A DNA stretch of 64,000 nucleotides. Origin: Burkholderia sp. 9120 (GTDB lineage Bacteria; Pseudomonadota; Gammaproteobacteria; Burkholderiales; Burkholderiaceae). The notes below the pieces were generated by a model. That model had not been told where the DNA came from. It worked only from the letters and a program-made list of their open reading frames with translations, and ran no database searches. Positions 8,732-18,031 of the stretch are shown piece by piece. The DNA lies in assembly GCF_000745015.1 (NCBI RefSeq), contig NZ_JQNA01000002.1:4340001-4404000 (forward strand), in the 5' to 3' direction. Position numbers and translations under genes: made by a program. Every line of letters begins with the position of its first letter. Position 1 is the first letter of the stretch.

Positions 8732-8799
8732 GGCGGTTCCTATCCTCGATTGCAGCGTAAGTGTTACAACCATGCCGCCCGGCTAAACGGAGTGTCGCG

Positions 8800-10171
8800 A
8801 TGAGCGAGAAAAAACGGCAGATCAAGCTAGGCGCGTTTCTGATGGAGACGGGCCACCATATCGCCGCATGGAGGCACCCCGAGGCTCAGGCCGATGGCGG
8901 GCTCAACTTCGAACACTATGCGCAAGTCGCGCGTATCGCCGAACAGGCCAAATTCGACGCGATCTTTTTCGCCGATAGCGTCAGCGTGCGCGATACCAAT
9001 CTCGCTTCGCTATCGCGTACCGCGCGCGCGGATCACTTCGAACCGTTGACGCTGTTGTCGGCGCTCTCGGTGGTCACGCGCAACATCGGCCTGATCGCGA
9101 CGGTGTCGACCACCTTCAACGAACCCTACAATCTGGCGCGCAAATTCGCGTCGCTCGATCATCTGAGCGGTGGCCGCTCAGGCTGGAATCTCGTCACGTC
9201 GAGTACGGAATCCGAGGCGCTGAACTTCAGTTTCGAGCAGCATCCGGACCATGCGGTGCGTTATGAACGCGCGAAAGAGTTCTACGACGTGGTCGCGGGT
9301 CTGTGGGATAGCTGGGAAGACGATGCCTTCTCGCGCGACAAGCAGAGCGGTGTCTATTTCAATCCCGACAAGCTGCATGTGCTAAACCATCGCGGCAAGC
9401 ATTTCAAGGTGCGCGGGCCGTTGAACGTTGCGCGTTCGCCGCAGGGCTGGCCCGTCGTCGTGCAGGCAGGCGCATCGGATGCCAGCAAGGAACTCGCCGC
9501 GCAAACCGCTGAAATGATTTTTGTCGCGCACCAGACGCTGGAGGAAGCGCAGACGTTCTATCGGGACATCAAGGGACGGCTCGCGCGCTACGGGCGGCAG
9601 CCGGATCACCTGAAGATCATGCCCGGCATCTTCCCGGTGATCGGCAAAACCGAAGCCGAGGCGCGTGCAAAATTCGACGCGTTGCAGGAACTGATTCATC
9701 CTACGGTCGGGTTGGCGCTACTGTCGAATATGTCGGGCGGTGTCGACCTGTCCGGCTATCCGCTGGACGGGCCGGTTCCCGATCTGCCGGAAACCAATGG
9801 CGGTAAAAGCCGTCAGCAGTTTGCTGCTGGACCTGGCGCGGCGCGAGAACCTGACGATCCGCGAACTGTATCTGCGGATTGCGGGTGCGCGCGGACATCA
9901 GCAGGTGGTCGGTACGCCGGGGAGCGTCGCCGATCAGTTACAGCAATGGTTCGAGGAAGAAGGCGCGGACGGCTTTAACATCATGTCGCCGTGGCTGCCC
10001 GGTGGGCTGGGTGAGTTTGCGGAGTTGGTCGTGCCGGAGTTGCAACGGCGTGGGCTGTTCAGGACCGAGTACGAGGGGTGCACGCTGCGGGAAAATCTGG
10101 GGCTGCCGCGACCGGTGAATCGGTATGTTCAGGTTGCAACGGACCAACGCCTGACTGTAGCAGCGCAATAG
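8800..10171 (+). pseudogene. NtaA/SnaA/DszA-family FMN-dependent monooxygenase, frameshifted
   Basis: The ATG at 8800 (GGAG 6 nt upstream) starts a typical 450-residue LLM-class flavin monooxygenase. The motifs seen are KLGAFLMETGHHIAAWRHP, FDAIFFADS, FEPLTLLSALSVVT, HLSGGRSGWNLVTSS and GWPVVVQAGAS. At 9820-9822 the sequence reads TTT inside a stretch that should encode RQQLLLDLARREN. One extra T moves the rest (LTIRELYLRIAGARGHQQVVGTP... to the stop at 10171) into the +2 frame. Unrepaired, translation ends at 9978 with about 50 wrong residues and loses the C-terminal part of the barrel. It is either a recent pseudogene or a sequencing error. The family oxidises sulfonates, sulfones or aminopolycarboxylates with FMNH2 from a partner reductase. 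Confidence 0.88.
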
Positions 10172-10308: not shown

Positions 10309-10337
10309 TTGACAATGATTCGCATTACAGATAATTT
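10309..10337 (+). promoter_or_regulatory. Microcin promoter with an overlapping Fur-box-like operator
   Basis: TTGACA (10309-10314) and TAATTT (10332-10337) are spaced by exactly 17 bp, a good sigma-70 promoter. The bases at 10311-10329, GACAATGATTCGCATTACA, resemble the 19-bp Fur box GATAATGATWATCATTATC (about 14 of 19 positions, with inverted AATG/CATT cores) and cover the -35 and spacer. Iron-loaded Fur bound here would block RNA polymerase. The microcin gene starts 56 bp downstream of the -10. Iron-starvation control is known for enterobacterial class II microcins. Confidence 0.65.
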
Positions 10338-10392
10338 ACGAGCCGTGGCCACGCGAAAAATTTCTCCAATTTTTTAATCCACAGGAATCCAG

Positions 10393-10734
10393 ATGATTGT
10401 TGAATTGAATCGGCAAGAAATCGAACAGGTCTCCGGTGCCGGCTTGACCGGCACAGTAGCAGGCACGGTCGGAGGAACAGTCGCAGGGCAAGCAATCGGT
10501 CCGGAAGTCGGAGCAGGATTTGGCGCGGCGGTTGGATCATTCCTTCCCGGCATCGGCACTTTGGGCGGCGCAATTATTGGAGCCGGCATCGGCACCATGT
10601 ATGGCGGCCTGGCGGGCGGAGCGGCGGGCGCTTACGTAGCGGACAAACTTCAGGATCACGGGTGGGCATACTTCTTCCCCAACGGGGCGCCGACGTTCAA
10701 TGACCTTTTGCAGTTTACTGATCAGCTTCAATAA
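10393..10734 (+). CDS. Class II microcin precursor with double-glycine-type leader
   Basis: This 113-residue peptide begins MIVELNRQEIEQVSGAG. It matches the class II microcin leaders (M-x-x-[LI]-x-x-x-E-[LI]-x-x-V-[SG]-G-[AG]) that C39 exporter peptidases cut after the GA/GG pair, here after Ala16. The mature ~97 residues carry a long glycine-zipper region (GTVAGTVGGTVAG, GAGFGAAVGS, GGAIIGAGIG, GGLAGGAAGAY) and a polar aromatic tail (HGWAYFFPNGAPTFND). There are no cysteines and no Ser-rich siderophore-acceptor tail, so an unmodified class IIa-like membrane-active microcin is most likely. RBS AGGA lies 8 nt upstream. Its place ahead of immunity, adaptor, PCAT and TolC genes supports the call strongly. 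Target species are unknown. Confidence 0.88.
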   Translation: MIVELNRQEIEQVSGAGLTGTVAGTVGGTVAGQAIGPEVGAGFGAAVGSFLPGIGTLGGAIIGAGIGTMYGGLAGGAAGAYVADKLQDHGWAYFFPNGAPTFNDLLQFTDQLQ

Positions 10735-10750
10735 AATTCCTGACTAAAGC

Positions 10751-10766
10751 GCGCCAAGCTTGGCGC
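10751..10766 (+). terminator. 16-bp perfect palindrome between microcin and immunity genes
   Basis: GCGCCAAGCTTGGCGC lies 17 nt after the microcin stop and can fold into a 6-bp stem with an AGCT loop. No U-run follows. It may act as a partial terminator or RNA-processing stop that sets the microcin transcript above the export genes. Confidence 0.4.
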
Positions 10767-10796
10767 AATAGCTGGGCCTAGCGTTCAAGTATTTAT

Positions 10797-11174
10797 ATGA
10801 TATCCACCAGAAAATTTCTAGAAAAATTCATTGCGTTTTCCACTCTATTCATGGTGATAATAATCTCCATGTTTTTCTTGCTGGCCGAAGACTACGCTAT
10901 AGATTATGTGACCGGAAGCGCTTTATGTCTGATCAGTATAATTTTTCTGAGGAAGATCGCTTCAAAAAAATGGCCCGGCTTTCTTAATATCCCGTGGTAC
11001 AAAACCGACCTGCCGATTTACGGTGCACTTTTCGGACTGGCATTGTCACTGCTGGGAATTCTATCCAAAATGAATGGTGGTACTGCCGCCATTGCCTTTG
11101 CCTTGCCCGCCTCGCTCGGAACTGCATTGTACGATTATGTAGAAATCTTTCATGAAAAAGATAAAGGCAATTAG
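10797..11174 (+). CDS. Predicted microcin immunity protein (small multi-pass membrane protein)
   Basis: The product is 125 residues with about four hydrophobic segments at roughly 12-30, 36-50, 72-88 and 95-112, and a charged tail (EIFHEKDKGN). It sits immediately downstream of the microcin gene, is clearly more A+T-rich than the flanking chromosome, and has no recognisable enzyme motif. Small inner-membrane proteins in this position are the self-immunity proteins of class II microcins. The start codon has no good Shine-Dalgarno, so expression may depend on coupling or be weak. The role is inferred from position and topology. Confidence 0.65.
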   Translation: MISTRKFLEKFIAFSTLFMVIIISMFFLLAEDYAIDYVTGSALCLISIIFLRKIASKKWPGFLNIPWYKTDLPIYGALFGLALSLLGILSKMNGGTAAIAFALPASLGTALYDYVEIFHEKDKGN

Positions 11175-11195
11175 TAGACGGCAATTGAGACTTCA

Positions 11196-12470
11196 ATGAG
11201 CAGCCGTACCCAACTTTTCCGAAATAAAGCACTCGATGCCCAGCGCACGTCGGTAATCGGCGAGATCGTGCTGGCGCGCCCTGTCTCGTTCTCGTTCCTG
11301 ACGGCTGTAGCCATCTGCATGGCGCTCGCCGTCGCCTCGTTATTGGCGTTCGGCAGTTATACGCGCCGCACCACGGTGGATGGCGTCGTCATGCCCAACA
11401 TCGGACTCGTCAAGGTCTATTCACAGCAGTCGGGCATTGTGTTGCGCAAGGCAGTCGTCGAAGGTCAGTACGTAACGCGCGGCATGGTGCTCTATACGCT
11501 CTCCACCGACCTGCAGAGCGCCGCCGAAGGTCGCACACAGGTCGCGTTGATCGAGCAGGCACGTCAGCGCAAACAATCGCTGCTGCGCGAGAGCGACAAG
11601 ATACGTCTGCTGCAACGGGATGAGCGCGATACGCTGCAGGCGAAGCACGCCAGTTTGCGCGCCGAACTCGCCCGCCTCGAAGACCAGCTCGCACGTCAAG
11701 TCGAACGCGCATCGCTTGCGGCCGACGGCGTTGGCCGCTATCGGCGTCTCCTCGCCCAGGACTACGTCTCGACCGACCAGCTCCAGCAACGGCAAGCCGA
11801 TCTGATCGACCAGCAGTCGAAGCTGCTCGGGCTGCAGCGCGACCGGGCCAACGTCTCCCAGGCAGTCAAGGCGAGCGCGAACGAACTCGCCGGTCTTGCG
11901 CTCAGGCAGCAGAACCAGTTGGCGCAGCTCGATCGCAGCGTGATCGATGTCGACCAGACACTGATCGAAAGCGAGGCGCGACGCTAACTCGTCATCACCG
12001 CGCCTGAGAACGGTATCGCGACCGCCGTCATTGCCGAACCGGGCCAGACGATAGACGCCATCCATCCGGCTGTGAGCATTGTGCCGGAAGGCTCGCGTTG
12101 GTACGTTCAGTTGTACGTGCCCAGCGCGGCGGTCGGCTTCGTCGGCGTCGGCGTTCCGGTGCGAGTGCGCTACCAGGCTTATCCGTACCAGAAGTTCGGC
12201 CAGTATCGCGCGCAGGTGACGTCGATCGCGCGGACGGCGCTGTCGGCCGCCGAACTGTCGATGAGTGGCATGGCCGCAGTCGGTGCACGTGGAGGCGACG
12301 CTACGTTCTACCGCGTCACGGCCACGCTTGATCAGCAGACAGTGACCGCGTACGGCAAGCCGCAACCGCTGCAGTCGGGCATGGCGCTCGAAGCCGACAT
12401 CCTGCGCGAACGCCGGCGTCTTTACGAATGGGTGCTCGAGCCGCTCTACAGTCTCACCGGCAAACTCTAA
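11196..12470 (+). pseudogene. CvaA/HlyD-like microcin export adaptor interrupted by an in-frame TAA
   Basis: The reading from the ATG at 11196 has an N-terminal cytoplasmic stretch, one membrane helix (about residues 29-52), a lipoyl-type half (GIVLRKAVVEGQYVTRGMVLYTLS) and a long coiled coil. It stops at TAA 11985-11987 after SEARR. The same frame continues at once with LVITAPENGIATAVIAEPGQ, the second lipoyl half, then the beta-barrel and C-terminus to 12470. Related adaptors have Gln at this point, so one C-to-T change (CAA to TAA) explains the break. Without it the gene would encode 423-424 residues, the normal CvaA size. The downstream exporter ATG overlaps its final stop (TAATG). No strong restart site follows the TAA. 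Export is probably lost unless the stop is read through or is a sequence error. Confidence 0.88.
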
Positions 12471-14740
12471 TGTCTCTTTCCGCCATGTTCTTTTCCGACC
12501 GCCTCTCGTTCGGTTTTAGCAGCAAGCTGCCCATCTTCTTGCAGACAGAAGCAACTGAATGCGGACTCGCCTGTCTTGCGATGGTCGCCGGCTATCACGG
12601 CGACCATGTGGATCTCGCCACGTTGCGCGGCCGCTTTCCGGTATCGCTAAAGGGAACCGCGCTCGCTCGCCTGATCGAGATCGCACAACGCCTCGAACTG
12701 GGTACTCGTGCACTAAAGCTCGACCTCGACCAGATCGGGCAACTCCGCATGCCGTGCATCCTGCATTGGAACTTCAACCACTTCGTCGTGTTAAAAAAGA
12801 TCAGCGGCAAGCTCGCTGTGATACACGATCCCGCACAAGGCATTCGCAAGTTGCCGCTCGACGTGCTATCGCGCTGTTTCACCGGCGTCGCACTGGAGTT
12901 GTGGCCCACCGGTGGTTTCAAACAGCGCGATCCGGCACCGCCGATCAGGTTGCGTGCGCTGCTCGGTCCCGTGTCGGGGCTATCCCGCTCGCTTGGCCAG
13001 GTGCTGGCGCTCGCTTTCGCGCTCGAAGTGTTTGCGATCGTGCAGCCGTTCTTTATGCAATGGGTCATCGACGAGGTGATCGTCAGCGCCGACCACGATC
13101 TACTCACCGTGCTGGCACTCGGGTTCGGGCTCCTGCTGTTTATGCAGCAGGCGACCAGCGCAGTCCGCGCGTGGGTGCTGATGTACTTCGGCACGACGCT
13201 AAATGTGCGGTGGCGTGCGAACGTGTTCATGCATCTGCTCAGCTTGCCGGTGCGCTACTTTGAGCGACGCCATCTCGGCGACGTCGTGTCGCGCTTTGGT
13301 TCGATCGACGCGATCCAGCAGACGCTCACCACATCGTTCCTGAGCGCGGTAATCGACGGCCTGATGACCGTCGCCACGCTTGTGATGATGTTCATCTACA
13401 GCAGCGCGCTCGGTGGTATCGCGCTCGGCGCGATGGCGCTTTATACTTTGCTGCGCTGGCTTTGGTACCGTCCTCTGCGGCGCGCAACCGAAGAGCAGAT
13501 CGTACGCGCCGCGAGACAACAGAGTTACTTTCTCGAAAGCGTGCGCGGCGTGAAAACGATCAAACTGTTCAATCGGCAGAACGAGCGCTGTGCGAGTTGG
13601 CTGTCTCTGTTCGTCGAGCAAGTCAACGCCGGATTGCATACGCAGAAACTGCAGTTGCTGTATCAGCAGGTCAATGGGTTGCTGTTCGGCATAGAAGGCT
13701 TGCTGGTTATCTGGCTCGGTGCACGGATGGTGATGGAGGGCCAGTTTACCGTTGGCGTGCTCATGGCATTCAACGCGTACAAGATGCAGTTCGATAGTCG
13801 CGTCGGCGGCCTCATCGATAAGTATTTCGAGGTGCGCATGTTGCAGTTGCAGGGCGAGCGGCTAGCCGACATCGTATTCGCGAGCCCTGAGCCTGACGCC
13901 AGCCTGCGCCATGTGCCGGGCGAAGCCGACCACCTCGCCGCGAGCATCGAATTTGACGCGATCTGCTTCAGCTATGCGGAGGGCGAGCCGACCGTGCTCG
14001 ACGGCGTGGCGCTCGCTATCACTCCCGGCGAATCGGTAGCGATAGTCGGGCCGTCGGGATGCGGCAAGACGACGCTCGTCAACGTCCTGCTCGGCGTGCT
14101 AGAACCGACGGCGGGCAAAGTGCGGATCGGTGGAATCGAACTCGAGCGGCTCGGACTCGATCGCCTGCGTGCGCTCGTAGGCACCGTGTTGCAAGACGAC
14201 GTGCTCTTCGCCGGCTCGATTGCGGACAACATTAGCTTCTTCGATCCGGACGCCGACTTGCGATGGGTTGCAGAGTGTGCAGGGCTCGCCGCGGTGCATG
14301 CCGATATTGTCGCGATGCCGATGGGCTACAACACGCTTGTCGGCGATATGGGCACTGTCCTGTCCGGGGGGCAGAAACAGCGCGTGCTACTTGCCCGCGC
14401 GTTATACAAGAGGCCGAAGATTCTCGTACTCGACGAGGCGACGAGCCATCTCGACCTGCAGCGCGAGCAGGAGGTCAACACGGCCGTCGGCGCGCTGCGG
14501 ATCACGCGCGTGATCGTCGCTCACCGACCCGAGACGATTGCGTCGGCCGATCGCGTCGTGATGTTGAACAGTGGACGGATCGTGCTCGACCGGCCGACTA
14601 CGCAGTCTTTCGAGACCGCTTCAGCGGCGCCGATGGGCAGCTCTCGCGGCGCTCACGAGCCGGCGGCCGTAATCGCATCGGCCCGCCCGTTTGCGACGCC
14701 TGGCGTTGCCACGCCGTGGCCCGTCGAACAGCCCAACTGA
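12470..14740 (+). CDS. CvaB-like peptidase-containing ABC exporter (PCAT)
   Basis: This 756-residue inner-membrane exporter starts at the ATG at 12470, which overlaps the preceding stop. Residues 1-140 form a C39 peptidase: Cys31 in QTEATECGLACLAMVAGYHG, the His of HWNFNHFVVLKK and the Asp of VIHDPAQG. An ABC transmembrane domain with six helices follows (about 165-445). The nucleotide-binding domain has Walker A GPSGCGKTTLVN, signature LSGGQKQR, Walker B ILVLDEATSHLD and the H-loop VAHRPE. Such proteins cleave the double-glycine leader and export the mature microcin through an adaptor and TolC. All catalytic motifs are intact. Confidence 0.96.
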   Translation: MSLSAMFFSDRLSFGFSSKLPIFLQTEATECGLACLAMVAGYHGDHVDLATLRGRFPVSLKGTALARLIEIAQRLELGTRALKLDLDQIGQLRMPCILHWNFNHFVVLKKISGKLAVIHDPAQGIRKLPLDVLSRCFTGVALELWPTGGFKQRDPAPPIRLRALLGPVSGLSRSLGQVLALAFALEVFAIVQPFFMQWVIDEVIVSADHDLLTVLALGFGLLLFMQQATSAVRAWVLMYFGTTLNVRWRANVFMHLLSLPVRYFERRHLGDVVSRFGSIDAIQQTLTTSFLSAVIDGLMTVATLVMMFIYSSALGGIALGAMALYTLLRWLWYRPLRRATEEQIVRAARQQSYFLESVRGVKTIKLFNRQNERCASWLSLFVEQVNAGLHTQKLQLLYQQVNGLLFGIEGLLVIWLGARMVMEGQFTVGVLMAFNAYKMQFDSRVGGLIDKYFEVRMLQLQGERLADIVFASPEPDASLRHVPGEADHLAASIEFDAICFSYAEGEPTVLDGVALAITPGESVAIVGPSGCGKTTLVNVLLGVLEPTAGKVRIGGIELERLGLDRLRALVGTVLQDDVLFAGSIADNISFFDPDADLRWVAECAGLAAVHADIVAMPMGYNTLVGDMGTVLSGGQKQRVLLARALYKRPKILVLDEATSHLDLQREQEVNTAVGALRITRVIVAHRPETIASADRVVMLNSGRIVLDRPTTQSFETASAAPMGSSRGAHEPAAVIASARPFATPGVATPWPVEQPN

Positions 14741-16167
14741 TGAAACGGCGTCTTCTCGCCGCCGCGGTCGTTGCGCTAACCGGTGCCCCTCGCGTCAATG
14801 CCCAGATGCTTCTTGACGTGTTCGCCACGCAGAGCAGCGTGTGGCTCACGCCTGCAGCACCACTGTTAAAAGACGCTTCATGCCGCGAGTTGCCGGACAC
14901 GCGACCGCTCGAACTCGACGACGTAGTCCTGCAGGCGGTTTGTGCGAATCCGCAGTTGCGTGTGGCGTGGGCACAGGCGCGCGCGCAAAGCGCCGCGCTG
15001 GGTATTGCCGATACCGCCTACCTGCCGACGCTGAACGGGACAATGGGCGCCGAGCGTGACACGCTGTCCACCACCTACGACTACAGTGCGCTGGGCGCAG
15101 GCTCGATCCGCCAGTCGCAGAATACGTCGAGCAATTACGGGGTGCTGAACCTGAGTTGGGTCCTGTTCGACTTTGGCAAGCGCGGCGCCTCCCGGCGGCA
15201 GGCCGGCGCGTTGCTCGCAGCGGCGAACGCCACGCAGGACGACACGCTGCAGACGGTTTTTTTCAACGCGGCCCAGGCGTTCTACTCTCTGCGAGACGCC
15301 CAGGCATCACTCGATGCAGCGCAGCGCACCGAAGCGATCTCACGCGAAAGCCTCGATGAGACGAGAGCGAAACATGTCGCTGGCGCCGGCGCGCTAGCCG
15401 ACGAACTGCAGGCCCGCACCGGCCACCGACGCGCGCTGCTCGAACGGGTCTATGCGGAAGGCGAGGTCCGCGTGGCGACAGGCGTTCTTGCCGTCGCGCT
15501 AGGACTCGAGGCGAACGCCGCGATACGAATCGCGTCCGCCGAGCGCGACGCGGATGCGCCGGAGGACATCAGCGCCGGTATCGACGCACTGATCGACGAA
15601 GCGAAGCTGCGCGAACCCAGGCTTGTCGCCGCACAGGCAAAACTCGACGCGGCTCGCGCGAATGTCGACGCCGCACGCGCGCAGGGCCGCCCGACCCTCG
15701 CGCTCGTCGGCAGCCTCACGCAGAACAACCCGTCATACCAGCAGCAACCCCGGTCGATTCCGATCACGCAAAGCCGCGGCAGCACGATCGGCGTGCAACT
15801 GACGATTCCACTGTTCGAAGGTTTCGCGTCCGACTATCGAATCGAGCAGGCCCAGGCGCAAGCCGACGCGCGGGAGGCGATGCTGCGCGACGACCAGTTG
15901 CAGGTATCGCTCGACGTGTGGAAGAGCTACCACAGCGTGCGGGCCGACGCCGCCAATCTGGCCAACTCGCGAGATCTGCTCGACGATGCGCAGCACGCGC
16001 TCGATATTGCGCGCGGCCGTTACAAGGAGGGTGTGGGCACGTTCACCGAACTGCTGAATACACAAACCGCGCTCGCCGATGCCCAGAAACAGCGCGTTCT
16101 TGCGGCGTCGAAATGGCGCGCCGCACGTCTCAAACTCGCCGCGAGCCTCGGCAAACTCGGCCGGTAG
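14740..16167 (+). CDS. TolC-family outer-membrane channel of the microcin exporter
   Basis: The ATG at 14740 overlaps the stop of the exporter (TGATG), showing translational coupling. The 475-residue product has a signal peptide (MKRRLLAAAVVALTGAPRVNA) and the two-repeat outer-membrane efflux protein fold: VLQAVCANPQLRVAWAQARAQSAALG with a long helix, the beta strands SSNYGVLNLSWVLFDFGKR and STIGVQLTIPLFEGF, and RYKEGVGTFTELLNTQTALADAQ. Enterobacterial microcin loci borrow the chromosomal TolC, whereas this cluster carries its own channel. It completes the tripartite secretion apparatus with the adaptor and PCAT. Its 3' end overlaps a minus-strand reading (16130-16372). Confidence 0.94.
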   Translation: MKRRLLAAAVVALTGAPRVNAQMLLDVFATQSSVWLTPAAPLLKDASCRELPDTRPLELDDVVLQAVCANPQLRVAWAQARAQSAALGIADTAYLPTLNGTMGAERDTLSTTYDYSALGAGSIRQSQNTSSNYGVLNLSWVLFDFGKRGASRRQAGALLAAANATQDDTLQTVFFNAAQAFYSLRDAQASLDAAQRTEAISRESLDETRAKHVAGAGALADELQARTGHRRALLERVYAEGEVRVATGVLAVALGLEANAAIRIASAERDADAPEDISAGIDALIDEAKLREPRLVAAQAKLDAARANVDAARAQGRPTLALVGSLTQNNPSYQQQPRSIPITQSRGSTIGVQLTIPLFEGFASDYRIEQAQAQADAREAMLRDDQLQVSLDVWKSYHSVRADAANLANSRDLLDDAQHALDIARGRYKEGVGTFTELLNTQTALADAQKQRVLAASKWRAARLKLAASLGKLGR

Positions 16168-16372
16168 ATATCGAGGCCGAGAAAACCGCAAACCCCAACA
16201 CCATCGCACAGATCGCACCCGCCGCGGCAAGCCGAAACATCAGCGTCTGAAAATAAGCCTCGGGCACACCAAACGCAAAGATCGAAACCAACGCGCCTAA
16301 CTGGATGACAACCGCCGACATCGACGCGGTCACCAGATAAGCGCGCAACCTGACGGTAGTGGAAAGCTTCAT
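16130..16372 (-). CDS. Small two-TM membrane protein overlapping the tolC-like gene tail to tail
   Basis: The minus-strand reading from the ATG at 16372 encodes 80 residues with two clear membrane helices (VTASMSAVVIQLGALVSIFAFG and RLAAAGAICAMVLGFAVFSASI). The final ~14 residues (STGRVCRGSRRV...) lie inside the 3' end of the TolC-like gene. They look like read-through into foreign sequence, as if the original stop was lost when the microcin cluster joined. The hydrophobic pattern and codon bias support a real gene; the Shine-Dalgarno is weak. The function is unknown. Confidence 0.5.
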   Translation of the reverse strand: MKLSTTVRLRAYLVTASMSAVVIQLGALVSIFAFGVPEAYFQTLMFRLAAAGAICAMVLGFAVFSASISTGRVCRGSRRV

Positions 16373-16523
16373 GGGCTGCTGCCTGATAAGCAAAACGCGA
16401 CGAGCGTTGCGCGCGCAACCAACCGTCCCAAACGACGAAACCGTCCGGGCGGCACACTACGCACATCACAGTACGCACATCAACCGACGTTCCAGCCTAT
16501 CAAGCGAACCTTAATGGAACCTG

Positions 16524-16547
16524 ATGCGGCGAGAATCTTCGCCGCAT
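16524..16547. terminator. Perfect 9-bp stem-loop downstream of cbpM
   Basis: ATGCGGCGA (16524-16532) pairs with TCGCCGCAT (16539-16547) around a 6-nt loop. It lies 28 nt past the stop of the minus-strand cbpA-cbpM operon. A U-run is lacking, so the efficiency is uncertain. Confidence 0.45.
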
Positions 16548-16574
16548 GAATCCCAAATCACCAGCGCACGCGCC

Positions 16575-16880
16575 CTAAGCCCCACGCGGACGCTTCACGC
16601 GCGCCCGCAGCGCCTCGATCTCGTCCAGCAGGTCGAGCGCAAGCGCGATGCCCGGCGGGTTGATCTCCAGATCGTGCGCGAGGCGCTGCGCGGTTCGCAC
16701 GCGCCGTAGCGCGACGCCGCTAAAACGCCACTCCTCGGGCTTTTCGCCCGCGGGTTCGAACACGCCTTCAGAAACCCACAGCGTCATCTCTTCCGTCGAT
16801 GCCCCGCTCACCCGGCACAACTCGACCAGCGTGAATTCGACGTTTTCATCGACGATCTGGCCTTCCATGTAAGTCGTCAC
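16575..16880 (-). CDS. cbpM: Chaperone modulatory protein CbpM
   Basis: The 101-residue product (VTTYMEGQIVDENVEFTLVELCRVSGASTEEMTLWVSEGVFEP...) fits the MerR-like helix-turn-helix CbpM family. CbpM binds the J domain of CbpA and inhibits its co-chaperone activity. The start is a GTG at 16880, with AAGGAG 7 nt upstream; the internal ATG four codons later has no such site. It lies 11 nt after cbpA on the same strand, the standard cbpA-cbpM operon. The C-terminus (LALDLLDEIEALRARVKRP) is a coiled helix. Confidence 0.9.
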   Translation of the reverse strand: MTTYMEGQIVDENVEFTLVELCRVSGASTEEMTLWVSEGVFEPAGEKPEEWRFSGVALRRVRTAQRLAHDLEINPPGIALALDLLDEIEALRARVKRPRGA

Positions 16881-16891
16881 AGTGGTCTCCT

Positions 16892-17887
16892 TCACGAGGA
16901 TGATCCATAAAAGTGCGCGCGCGGATCGAAGCTGAAAGACCGACGCATCGTCTCGTAAGCGGCCTTCGCGGCATCGCTGTCCGCGGGCGGCAGCACGAGA
17001 TTCAGCACCACGTACAGATCGCCCGGCGGGTTGGCGGGAATCCCCTTGCCTCTCAACCGTAGACGCCGTCCGCCTGCCGAGCCGGCCGGCACGGTCATCT
17101 CGACGGAACCGTCGACGGTCGGCACCGTGACTTGCGCGCCGAGCGCCGCTTCCCATGGCGCGACCGGCAACTCGATGGAGACGTCGCGGCCATCCACGCG
17201 AAAACGCGGATGCTCGCGAAAGCCGACTTCAAGGTAGAGATCGCCGGCGTTTTCGGGCGTCGAGCCGGGGCCGCCCTGACCGGCCAGCCGCAGGTGCTGC
17301 CCCGCGCGAATGCCTTTCGGAATGGCGACGTCGAGCGTGCGCGTTTCCAGCGTGACATGGCCTTGCGCGTCCACCGCCGGCATCTGTAGGGAAATGGAGC
17401 GTTGCGCGCCCCGATACGCGTCTTCGAGATCGATCAGCACCTTCGCGTGATGATCCTCGCCGCGCATGTCGAACGGCCGGTGCTGTGACTGCGCCCCGTG
17501 TCGACCCTGCGGGCCGTGCGCGCCGCCGCCGAACATCTGCTCGAAGAACGACTGAAAATCGGCCTGCGCGCCGGCCTCGTCACCCGCACTGCTGCCACCC
17601 CCCGCGCCGCCACCACGGAATTCGAAGCCCTCGTCCCAGTTCGGCGGCGGCTGAAATTCCTGACCGTTGCGCCATTCGCTGCCCATGCGGTCGTAGGCGG
17701 CACGCTTCTCCGGGTCCTTGAGCACTTCGTAGGCTTCGCCCAGTTCCTTGAAGCGCTCTTCGGCGTCGGCCTCCTTGCTGACGTCCGGGTGATACTTGCG
17801 CGCGAGCTTGCGATACGAGCGTTTGATGTCGTCCTGAGACGCACCGCGCTCGAGCGCAAGCACCTCGTAATAGTCCTTGTATTTCAT
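16892..17887 (-). CDS. cbpA: Curved DNA-binding protein / DnaJ-like co-chaperone CbpA
   Basis: This is a 331-residue class II J-domain protein. Residues 4-69 are the J domain with the HPD motif at 33-35 (KYHPDVSKEADAEERF). A Gly-rich linker (about 80-135) follows, then two beta-sandwich substrate-binding domains (IPKGIRAGQHLRLAGQGGPG; VTVPTVDGSVEMTVPAGSAGGRRLRLRGKG). It stimulates DnaK ATPase and can bind DNA under stress. It is transcribed with cbpM, its inhibitor. A 9-bp GC hairpin (17922-17943) stands in its leader. The position beside stress and low-oxygen genes suggests a part in that response. Confidence 0.94.
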   Translation of the reverse strand: MKYKDYYEVLALERGASQDDIKRSYRKLARKYHPDVSKEADAEERFKELGEAYEVLKDPEKRAAYDRMGSEWRNGQEFQPPPNWDEGFEFRGGGAGGGSSAGDEAGAQADFQSFFEQMFGGGAHGPQGRHGAQSQHRPFDMRGEDHHAKVLIDLEDAYRGAQRSISLQMPAVDAQGHVTLETRTLDVAIPKGIRAGQHLRLAGQGGPGSTPENAGDLYLEVGFREHPRFRVDGRDVSIELPVAPWEAALGAQVTVPTVDGSVEMTVPAGSAGGRRLRLRGKGIPANPPGDLYVVLNLVLPPADSDAAKAAYETMRRSFSFDPRAHFYGSSS

Positions 17888-18031
17888 CCTGGCGGCAGCT
17901 CCTTGAGGTCAGGAAGCAGCGGTGCGGCGCCTGCGCGCCGCACGGCAGTCACCGTTTTACTTTATACCAATCTGGGCGGCCCGCCAGTGGCGCAGCCCAC
18001 ATGGAAACCCGCCCCAACCGGCGGCGGTCCA

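What the first reader, a model, noticed from the sequence alone, without database searches (positions are those of the whole stretch)
10309..16167. A complete class II microcin locus in a Burkholderiaceae genome
The sequence shows a 113-aa peptide with a VSGAG-type leader and glycine-zipper core, a small multi-TM protein, a CvaA/HlyD-like adaptor, a C39-peptidase ABC exporter with intact Cys/His/Asp, and its own TolC, with exporter and channel genes overlapping. Established knowledge: class II microcins (V, L, N, E492) use exactly this set, but are best known from enterobacteria. Inference: this is a new microcin of Burkholderia/Paraburkholderia with a glycine-rich pore-like core and a dedicated channel.
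Basis: partly seen in the sequence, partly recalled or inferred. Interest (0 to 1): 0.85.

Follow-up and report, generated by a model that had tools for sequence, protein, structure and literature searches.

The report
Decaying glycine-zipper microcin operon in Paraburkholderia
A Paraburkholderia bacterium carries genes for a small secreted peptide that probably kills rival bacteria, with its likely antidote and export machine, but in this strain one export gene is cut short, so the weapon is probably not released while the protection may remain.

Summary
A 113-aa precursor with a 16-aa GA leader and two glycine zippers, a 125-aa membrane protein, a C39/ABC exporter (C31, H104, D120 intact) and a TolC-type channel lie in one apparent operon. 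The HlyD-type adaptor gene between them is interrupted by an in-frame TAA at 11985-11987, one of two real coding lesions seen when 44 ORFs of a close relative were compared with the window. The same gene is open in the four relatives checked one by one. The ~6-kb stretch is an insertion: genome G117 has the flanks 254 bp apart. Peptide and membrane protein stay together in 6 of 6 clear orthologues across two genera, while adaptor, exporter and channel are together and open in only 2 of 6. A Fur-like box lies 81-92 bp upstream of the peptide gene in 5 of 8 loci examined. Best reading: an iron-regulated, pore-type bacteriocin of the class II microcin / Cdz-like kind, here probably an immune non-producer. 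New member of a known kind. Killing, immunity, cleavage and Fur control are untested.

The parts
10311..10329 (.). Fur-like box (14/19 to the E. coli consensus on -, 13/19 on +) overlapping a promoter-like TTGACA at 10309-10314 (read by eye, no promoter scan run)
   Evidence: a 14/19 site at a similar place in G105, G016, G399, G462
10393..10734 (+). 113-aa precursor peptide (putative microcin)
10393..10440 (+). 16-aa double-glycine-type leader ending SGA, hydrophobic at -4, -7, -12
   Evidence: invariant residues
10450..10536 (+). glycine zipper 1 (G20-G48, eight Gly in register)
10555..10629 (+). glycine zipper 2 (G55-G79, seven Gly in register)
10797..11174 (+). 125-aa membrane protein, candidate immunity protein
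11196..11987 (+). HlyD/CvaA-type adaptor, first piece, ending at premature TAA 11985-11987
11988..12470 (+). HlyD/CvaA-type adaptor, second piece in the same frame
12470..14740 (+). C39 peptidase/ABC exporter (756 aa from 12470; ORF open from 12428)
14740..16167 (+). TolC-type outer-membrane channel

Best explanation
The locus is a horizontally gained, probably Fur-repressed bacteriocin operon of the class II microcin / Cdz-like kind. Shown by sequence: leader, zippers, membrane-protein partner, exporter with intact catalytic residues, channel, Fur-like box, empty site in a relative, interrupted adaptor. Inferred: under iron shortage the precursor is made, the C39 domain cuts after GA(16), and ABC-adaptor-TolC would release a 97-aa peptide whose two glycine-zipper segments insert into a rival's inner membrane and depolarise it; the 125-aa protein protects the maker. 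In this strain the adaptor gene is cut short, so release is probably abolished and the strain is an immune non-producer.
For: Leader, glycine content and C39 residues match published microcin criteria. All 15 zipper glycines are invariant in the five aligned sequences, against 24 of 82 other core residues. A 125-aa membrane protein directly follows the peptide in 6 of 6 clear orthologues: G000, G105, G016, G015, G399, G462. Related exporters in L193, L195 and L196 sit beside other GG peptide plus small membrane protein pairs. Empty site in G117. Fur-like 14/19 box in 5 of 8 upstream regions, 0-4 of 500 shuffles each; the core palindrome lies 5' of two TonB-receptor genes. Adaptor stop.
Against: No activity, immunity or cleavage was measured. 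Pfam microcin/bacteriocin profiles match only below cut-off: Bacteriocin_IIc 16.7 of 27.1 bits, MccV 15.2 of 27. AlphaFold models are poor (pLDDT 42.6 and 59.6). Exporter-less copies exist (G016, G462). 3 of 8 upstream regions lack a 14/19 box, and an exact copy of the palindrome also lies before a penicillin-amidase gene. The stop could be an assembly error; no reads were available and no second genome with the same sequence was found.
Confidence: 0.66

Rival explanations
1. The operon is functional and the stop at 11985 is a sequencing or assembly error, so the strain is a normal producer.
For: Both adaptor pieces stay similar to the relative (dN 0.051/dS 0.187 and dN 0.026/dS 0.243), so the lesion is recent or not real. 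Exporter and channel are open.
Against: Two-contig genome, completeness 100. Of 44 relative ORFs (150 aa or longer) compared with the window only 2 real lesions remained, so general error is low. The paralogous adaptor in the same genome (L147) has also lost its end.
Confidence: 0.2
2. The peptide is a Cdz-like contact-dependent toxin that stays on the producer surface and kills on contact instead of diffusing. This competes with the diffusible reading, not with the bacteriocin reading.
For: Length, leader and one clean glycine zipper meet published Cdz-like criteria (PMC5380434); a small membrane protein and T1SS genes lie beside it.
Against: Zipper 1 is interrupted by P37/E38 and the part after the zippers is 34 residues, not clearly short and polar. 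Contact dependence cannot be read from sequence.
Confidence: 0.35
3. The peptide and membrane protein act inside the population (autolysis or another self-directed role), as reported for the gonococcal Nap peptides, and not against competitors.
For: GG-leader peptides that promote autolysis and did not inhibit competitors are documented (PMC11798529, passages); the pair is kept without a close exporter in G016 and G462.
Against: Nap peptides are short and cationic with another export channel; here the family lies with the whole T1SS gene set in G105 and G399.
Confidence: 0.1
4. A glycine-zipper envelope or structural protein wrongly read as a toxin (one source calls P0003 an outer membrane protein with glycine zipper; the name is cut).
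For: Weak Gly-zipper_YMGG and Rick_17kDa_Anti matches; unrelated zinc-ribbon glycine-zipper proteins turn up in the same searches. No signal-peptide predictor was run.
Against: Invariant GA leader, C39 exporter next door in G000, G105, G015 and G399 and 125-aa partner in 6 of 6 orthologues, Fur-like box.
Confidence: 0.05

Closest known systems
Class II microcins (MccV, L, N, E492, H47 and others), criteria from PMC9746304 and PMC11494933
   Same: GA leader of 16 aa with hydrophobic -4/-7/-12, glycine content 23% (precursor), C39/ABC exporter with Cys/His/Asp, adaptor gene, small membrane-protein neighbour; a Fur-like box (that several known microcins are iron-regulated is recalled)
   Different: No match above the Pfam cut-off to MccV; two long glycine zippers; TolC-type gene in the operon; no serine-rich C-terminus; adaptor interrupted in this strain; Betaproteobacterial host
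Cdz and Cdz-like systems (Caulobacter CdzABCDI; PMC5380434)
   Same: Small G[G/A/S]-leader glycine-zipper protein, T1SS, small multi-TM partner like CdzI; Burkholderia cepacia listed among Cdz-like carriers
   Different: One toxin gene, channel encoded in the operon, zipper 1 broken by P37/E38, longer C-terminal part; contact dependence untested
Neisseria gonorrhoeae Nap island peptides (PMC11798529)
   Same: GG-leader peptides on an acquired island with a C39 peptidase and a putative immunity protein
   Different: Nap peptides are short and cationic, use a FapF-related channel and act in autolysis
C39 exporter loci of Burkholderia and Paraburkholderia (L027-L037, L193-L196, L219, L225, L226)
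   Same: Homologous adaptor, exporter and TolC-type channel; a GG-leader peptide next door in 5 of the 11 loci L027-L037 by the strict pattern
   Different: The peptides seen are not clear orthologues except in L219 (G399), which has an orthologous peptide with the whole operon

Membership tests
class II microcin | 15-18-aa leader ending GG or GA, hydrophobic at -4, -7, -12 (PMC11494933) | tested here: met
   16-aa leader ending GA; V13, I10, L5
class II microcin | glycine content 12-26% (PMC11494933) | tested here: met
   26 of 113 (23.0%); mature 25 of 97 (25.8%)
class II microcin | C39 ABC exporter near, with Cys32/His105/Asp121 equivalents (PMC9746304) | tested here: met
   C31/H104/D120, aligned to PCAT1
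class II microcin | membrane fusion (adaptor) protein present and intact | tested here: not met
   gene interrupted at 11985-11987 in this strain; open in L019, L021, L219
class II microcin | TolC channel | tested here: met
   OEP domain E 2e-51; type_I_sec_TolC E 3.1e-53, below that model's cut-off
class II microcin | cognate immunity protein, 51-216 aa, usually membrane-borne, near the peptide (PMC9746304) | tested here: inconclusive
   125 aa, 3 hydrophobic peaks, 4 long helices in a weak model, adjacent in 6 of 6 orthologues; immunity itself untested
class II microcin | sequence membership in a known microcin/bacteriocin family profile | tested here: not met
   Bacteriocin_IIc and MccV below cut-off; no NCBIfam match; the protein search found only two homologues, at 96 and 68% identity, though genome search found more
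class II microcin | antibacterial activity | not testable with these tools
   no experiment
class IIb (siderophore) microcin | serine-rich C-terminus for siderophore attachment (recalled) | tested here: not met
   C-terminus reads ...FNDLLQFTDQLQ
Cdz-like | 60-151 residues, leader ending G[G/A/S], T1SS genes within 10 kb (PMC5380434) | tested here: met
   (one T1SS gene interrupted)
Cdz-like | one or two glycine zippers not interrupted by proline or charge | tested here: inconclusive
   zipper 2 (55-79) is clean; zipper 1 holds P37 and E38
[quoted passage not shown]
   34 residues after zipper 2, five charged
Cdz-like | contact-dependent killing, surface aggregates | not testable with these tools
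   no experiment

The most novel reading that the evidence does not exclude
The unit that selection keeps is the peptide plus 125-aa membrane protein, not the weapon: export genes decay repeatedly (stop here, deletion in G016, transposase sequence inside the operon of G015, absence in G462) while the pair stays. The pair would then work as a resistance module of immune non-producers, or have an export-independent role such as iron-controlled self-killing.
Probability: 0.2. Interest if true: 0.55.

Novelty: new member of a known kind. Interest (0 to 1): 0.42.

Why it matters
It would be a testable bacteriocin family of Paraburkholderia and a second Burkholderiaceae genus, with a candidate antidote and an iron switch. 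The searches made here listed no paper whose title or abstract start describes this family. Loss of the export genes with the toxin-antidote pair retained would give a natural series for studying how bacteriocin producers become immune non-producers.

Tried and rejected
Peptide search over the genus: 16 of 144 genomes matched at E<=0.001, but only 4 (G000, G105, G016, G015) are clear orthologues. Four weak matches inspected as L022, L023, L024 and L026 (G106, G125, a second place in G000, G053) are zinc-ribbon glycine-zipper proteins. G086 (L025) has a different GG peptide beside a related exporter. The weak matches in the other 8 genomes were not inspected. In the family search (28 of 398 genomes at E<=1e-4) I call G000, G105, G016, G015, G462 and G399 clear (E 9e-40 or better). 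G336 and G346 are weaker (1e-21, 5e-20); L220 (G336) has a 155-aa membrane protein next to the peptide, L221 (G346) a 196-aa one about 0.7 kb away, neither with an exporter beside it. Of the remaining matches, L222-L227 were fetched but not pursued.

A second gene supplying the adaptor in trans: the paralogue in L147 (63% identical) does not match the last 16 residues and has no related exporter in its 17-kb stretch, so rescue is unlikely. The other C39 exporters of the genome and the ABC matches (29-33% identical) were not tested as substitutes.

General assembly error: 5 of 44 ORFs were flagged. Two discrepancies lie ahead of the conserved domains and probable true starts. One flagged ORF has no Pfam match and lies antisense to a response-regulator-like ORF. 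That leaves the adaptor stop and a frameshift near 9818 in the upstream monooxygenase-like gene. ORFs under 150 aa were not compared.

Structure: AlphaFold2 models of peptide and membrane protein are low confidence; Foldseek on the latter gave no match at E<=0.001. Plasmid search with the peptide: no match. The strict leader pattern misses true peptides (for example L021), so 29 of 80 loci with a GG-leader ORF within 3 kb (37 hits in 433 kb near, 9 in 555 kb far) is a rough figure.

My TolC query (14719-16164) carried seven codons upstream of the ATG at 14740, and the exporter query 14 codons upstream of the likely start; neither changes the matches materially.
Full report
What is there. Six ORFs lie head to tail on the + strand between 10393 and 16167. 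Pfam and NCBIfam identify HlyD-type domains in both adaptor pieces, a C39 peptidase (E 3.1e-36) with ABC transporter domains, and a TolC-type OEP protein; the 125-aa protein has no Pfam match at E<=1 and the peptide has only sub-threshold matches. Junctions are tight: the adaptor stop and a likely exporter ATG share base 12470, the exporter stop and channel ATG share base 14740. The genome is 8.46 Mb in two contigs; the 96%-identical protein P0003 is named Paraburkholderia.

The break. The adaptor is read as 263 codons, then TAA at 11985-11987, then 160 codons in the same frame. The first piece has the start of the barrel-sandwich/lipoyl part (sub-threshold matches), the second the HlyD_3 match. 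In L019 (G105), L021 (G015) and L025 (G086) and in L219 (G399) the gene is open throughout. Among 80 named exporter relatives 72 adaptors could be assessed: 68 open, 4 not. Both pieces still show low dN against dS compared with G105 (0.051/0.187 and 0.026/0.243), so the lesion is young or not real. Across the window, 44 ORFs of G105 with a match gave two real lesions, this one and a frameshift near 9818 in the neighbouring monooxygenase-like gene; three further flags were explained as ORF-calling artefacts. So the assembly is not generally faulty. The database held only this one truncated sequence and its next best match is 86% identical, so no second strain could be checked. A paralogous adaptor elsewhere in the genome has lost its end.

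The peptide. The leader MIVELNRQEIEQVSGA fits the published class II rules (rules; test). The core has eight glycines at every fourth position (20-48) and seven more (55-79). All 15 are invariant among five aligned sequences down to 56% identity, against 24 of 82 other core residues. Eight in register is reached by 8 of 20000 shuffles and recurs in all seven homologues checked. The PGIG stretch between the zippers suggests a helical hairpin; this is inference, since the model is poor.

The partner. The 125-aa protein follows the peptide in all six clear orthologues but is less conserved: 87, 75 and 30% identity in G105, G016 and G015, where the peptide has 96, 95 and 56%. This fits a fast-evolving immunity protein but does not prove it. 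Related exporters elsewhere in Paraburkholderia lie beside other GG peptide plus small membrane protein pairs (L193, L195, L196), as expected of exchangeable toxin-immunity cassettes; in L192 and L194 no such pair was recognised.

Distribution and decay. In 144 genomes of the genus, 4 hold a clear orthologue of the peptide and 15 a related exporter at E<=1e-150, both counts including this genome. In 398 genomes of the family a profile finds strong matches in a second genus (G462, G399; weaker G336, G346). Of the six clear orthologues, G105 and G399 have adaptor, exporter and channel together and open. G000 has the stop. In G016 the export genes are deleted, the match to the first 20 adaptor residues abutting that to the last 43 of the channel, and its best exporters are 29-33% identical. 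In G015 transposase sequence (PF01609) lies between adaptor and exporter and no channel match was found in the stretch. G462 shows only a fragment (89 residues, 41%) of an ABC match at the edge of its stretch and 33% elsewhere.

Origin. In G117, window 8812-10127 and 16196-17992 are neighbours 254 bp apart: the same site without the operon. The kilobase around the peptide has the lowest GC of the window, 0.52.

Regulation. A 19-base site at 10311-10329 matches the E. coli Fur consensus at 14 of 19; 13 of 19 is quoted as possibly functional for orbS (PMC4786211, passages). A 14/19 site starts 81-92 bp upstream of the peptide start in 5 of 8 loci (0-4 of 500 shuffles each); L021, L220 and L221 score 10, 12 and 10. 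Of 313 control tiles of the window 1 reaches 14, and 10 sites of 13 or more occur in the whole window on both strands, so a single match means little without the conservation. The core palindrome with up to one mismatch occurs 13 times in the genome (two overlap) against 1 for the reversed control. Of the 12 other sites, 7 were looked at: two lie just 5' of TonB-dependent receptor genes, one 5' of a penicillin-amidase gene, three beside MFS, nitroreductase and dioxygenase genes, one in a stretch without an obvious target.

Comparison. By published criteria this is a class II microcin-like locus and also close to Cdz-like systems, which were predicted in B. cepacia (PMC5380434, passages). I searched for class II microcin + Burkholderia, microcin + Paraburkholderia, Burkholderia + bacteriocin + glycine zipper (10 of 11 listed) and C39 peptidase + Burkholderia + bacteriocin; no title or abstract start listed describes this family. 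Most subscription papers are not held and supplements could not be searched. PMC9746304, PMC11494933, PMC13174018, PMC11798529, PMC8386478, PMC4786211 and PMC9023288 were read as passages only.

Verdict. A real, degenerating bacteriocin-type operon; interesting as a conserved toxin-antidote pair with repeated loss of export genes; not a complete microcin locus.

Noticed in passing
window 8761-10171: The upstream flavin monooxygenase-like gene carries a frameshift near 9818 relative to G105 and G016, where it is one 456-aa ORF.
   Followed up: partly
L147 8022-10064 (G000:C2:2680000-2697000): A second, orphan microcin-like locus in the same genome: GG peptide (9572-9874 -), 71-aa membrane protein (9849-10064 -) and an adaptor lacking its end, without exporter; IS21-type IstB gene at 971-1747. 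A similar peptide sits with an exporter in L195 and L196.
   Followed up: partly
L149 3537-9042 and 15805-16152: Another exporter in the genome fuses cyclic-nucleotide-binding, C39 and ABC domains; small proteins with a different leader-like start ending RGG lie on both sides, one beside a PP2C phosphatase gene.
   Followed up: partly
L056 2383-6282 and L083 6063-6293: Janthinobacterium exporter loci carry GG-leader peptides (five in L056) with repeated 'IGEEGG'-like units.
   Followed up: no
L151 4195 (G000:C2:5603194): An exact copy of the Fur-like palindrome lies 5' of a penicillin-amidase family gene.
   Followed up: no
L112, L113, L122: Related exporters in G087, G123 and G056 were flagged with in-frame stops inside the match; their places were not checked.
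   Followed up: no
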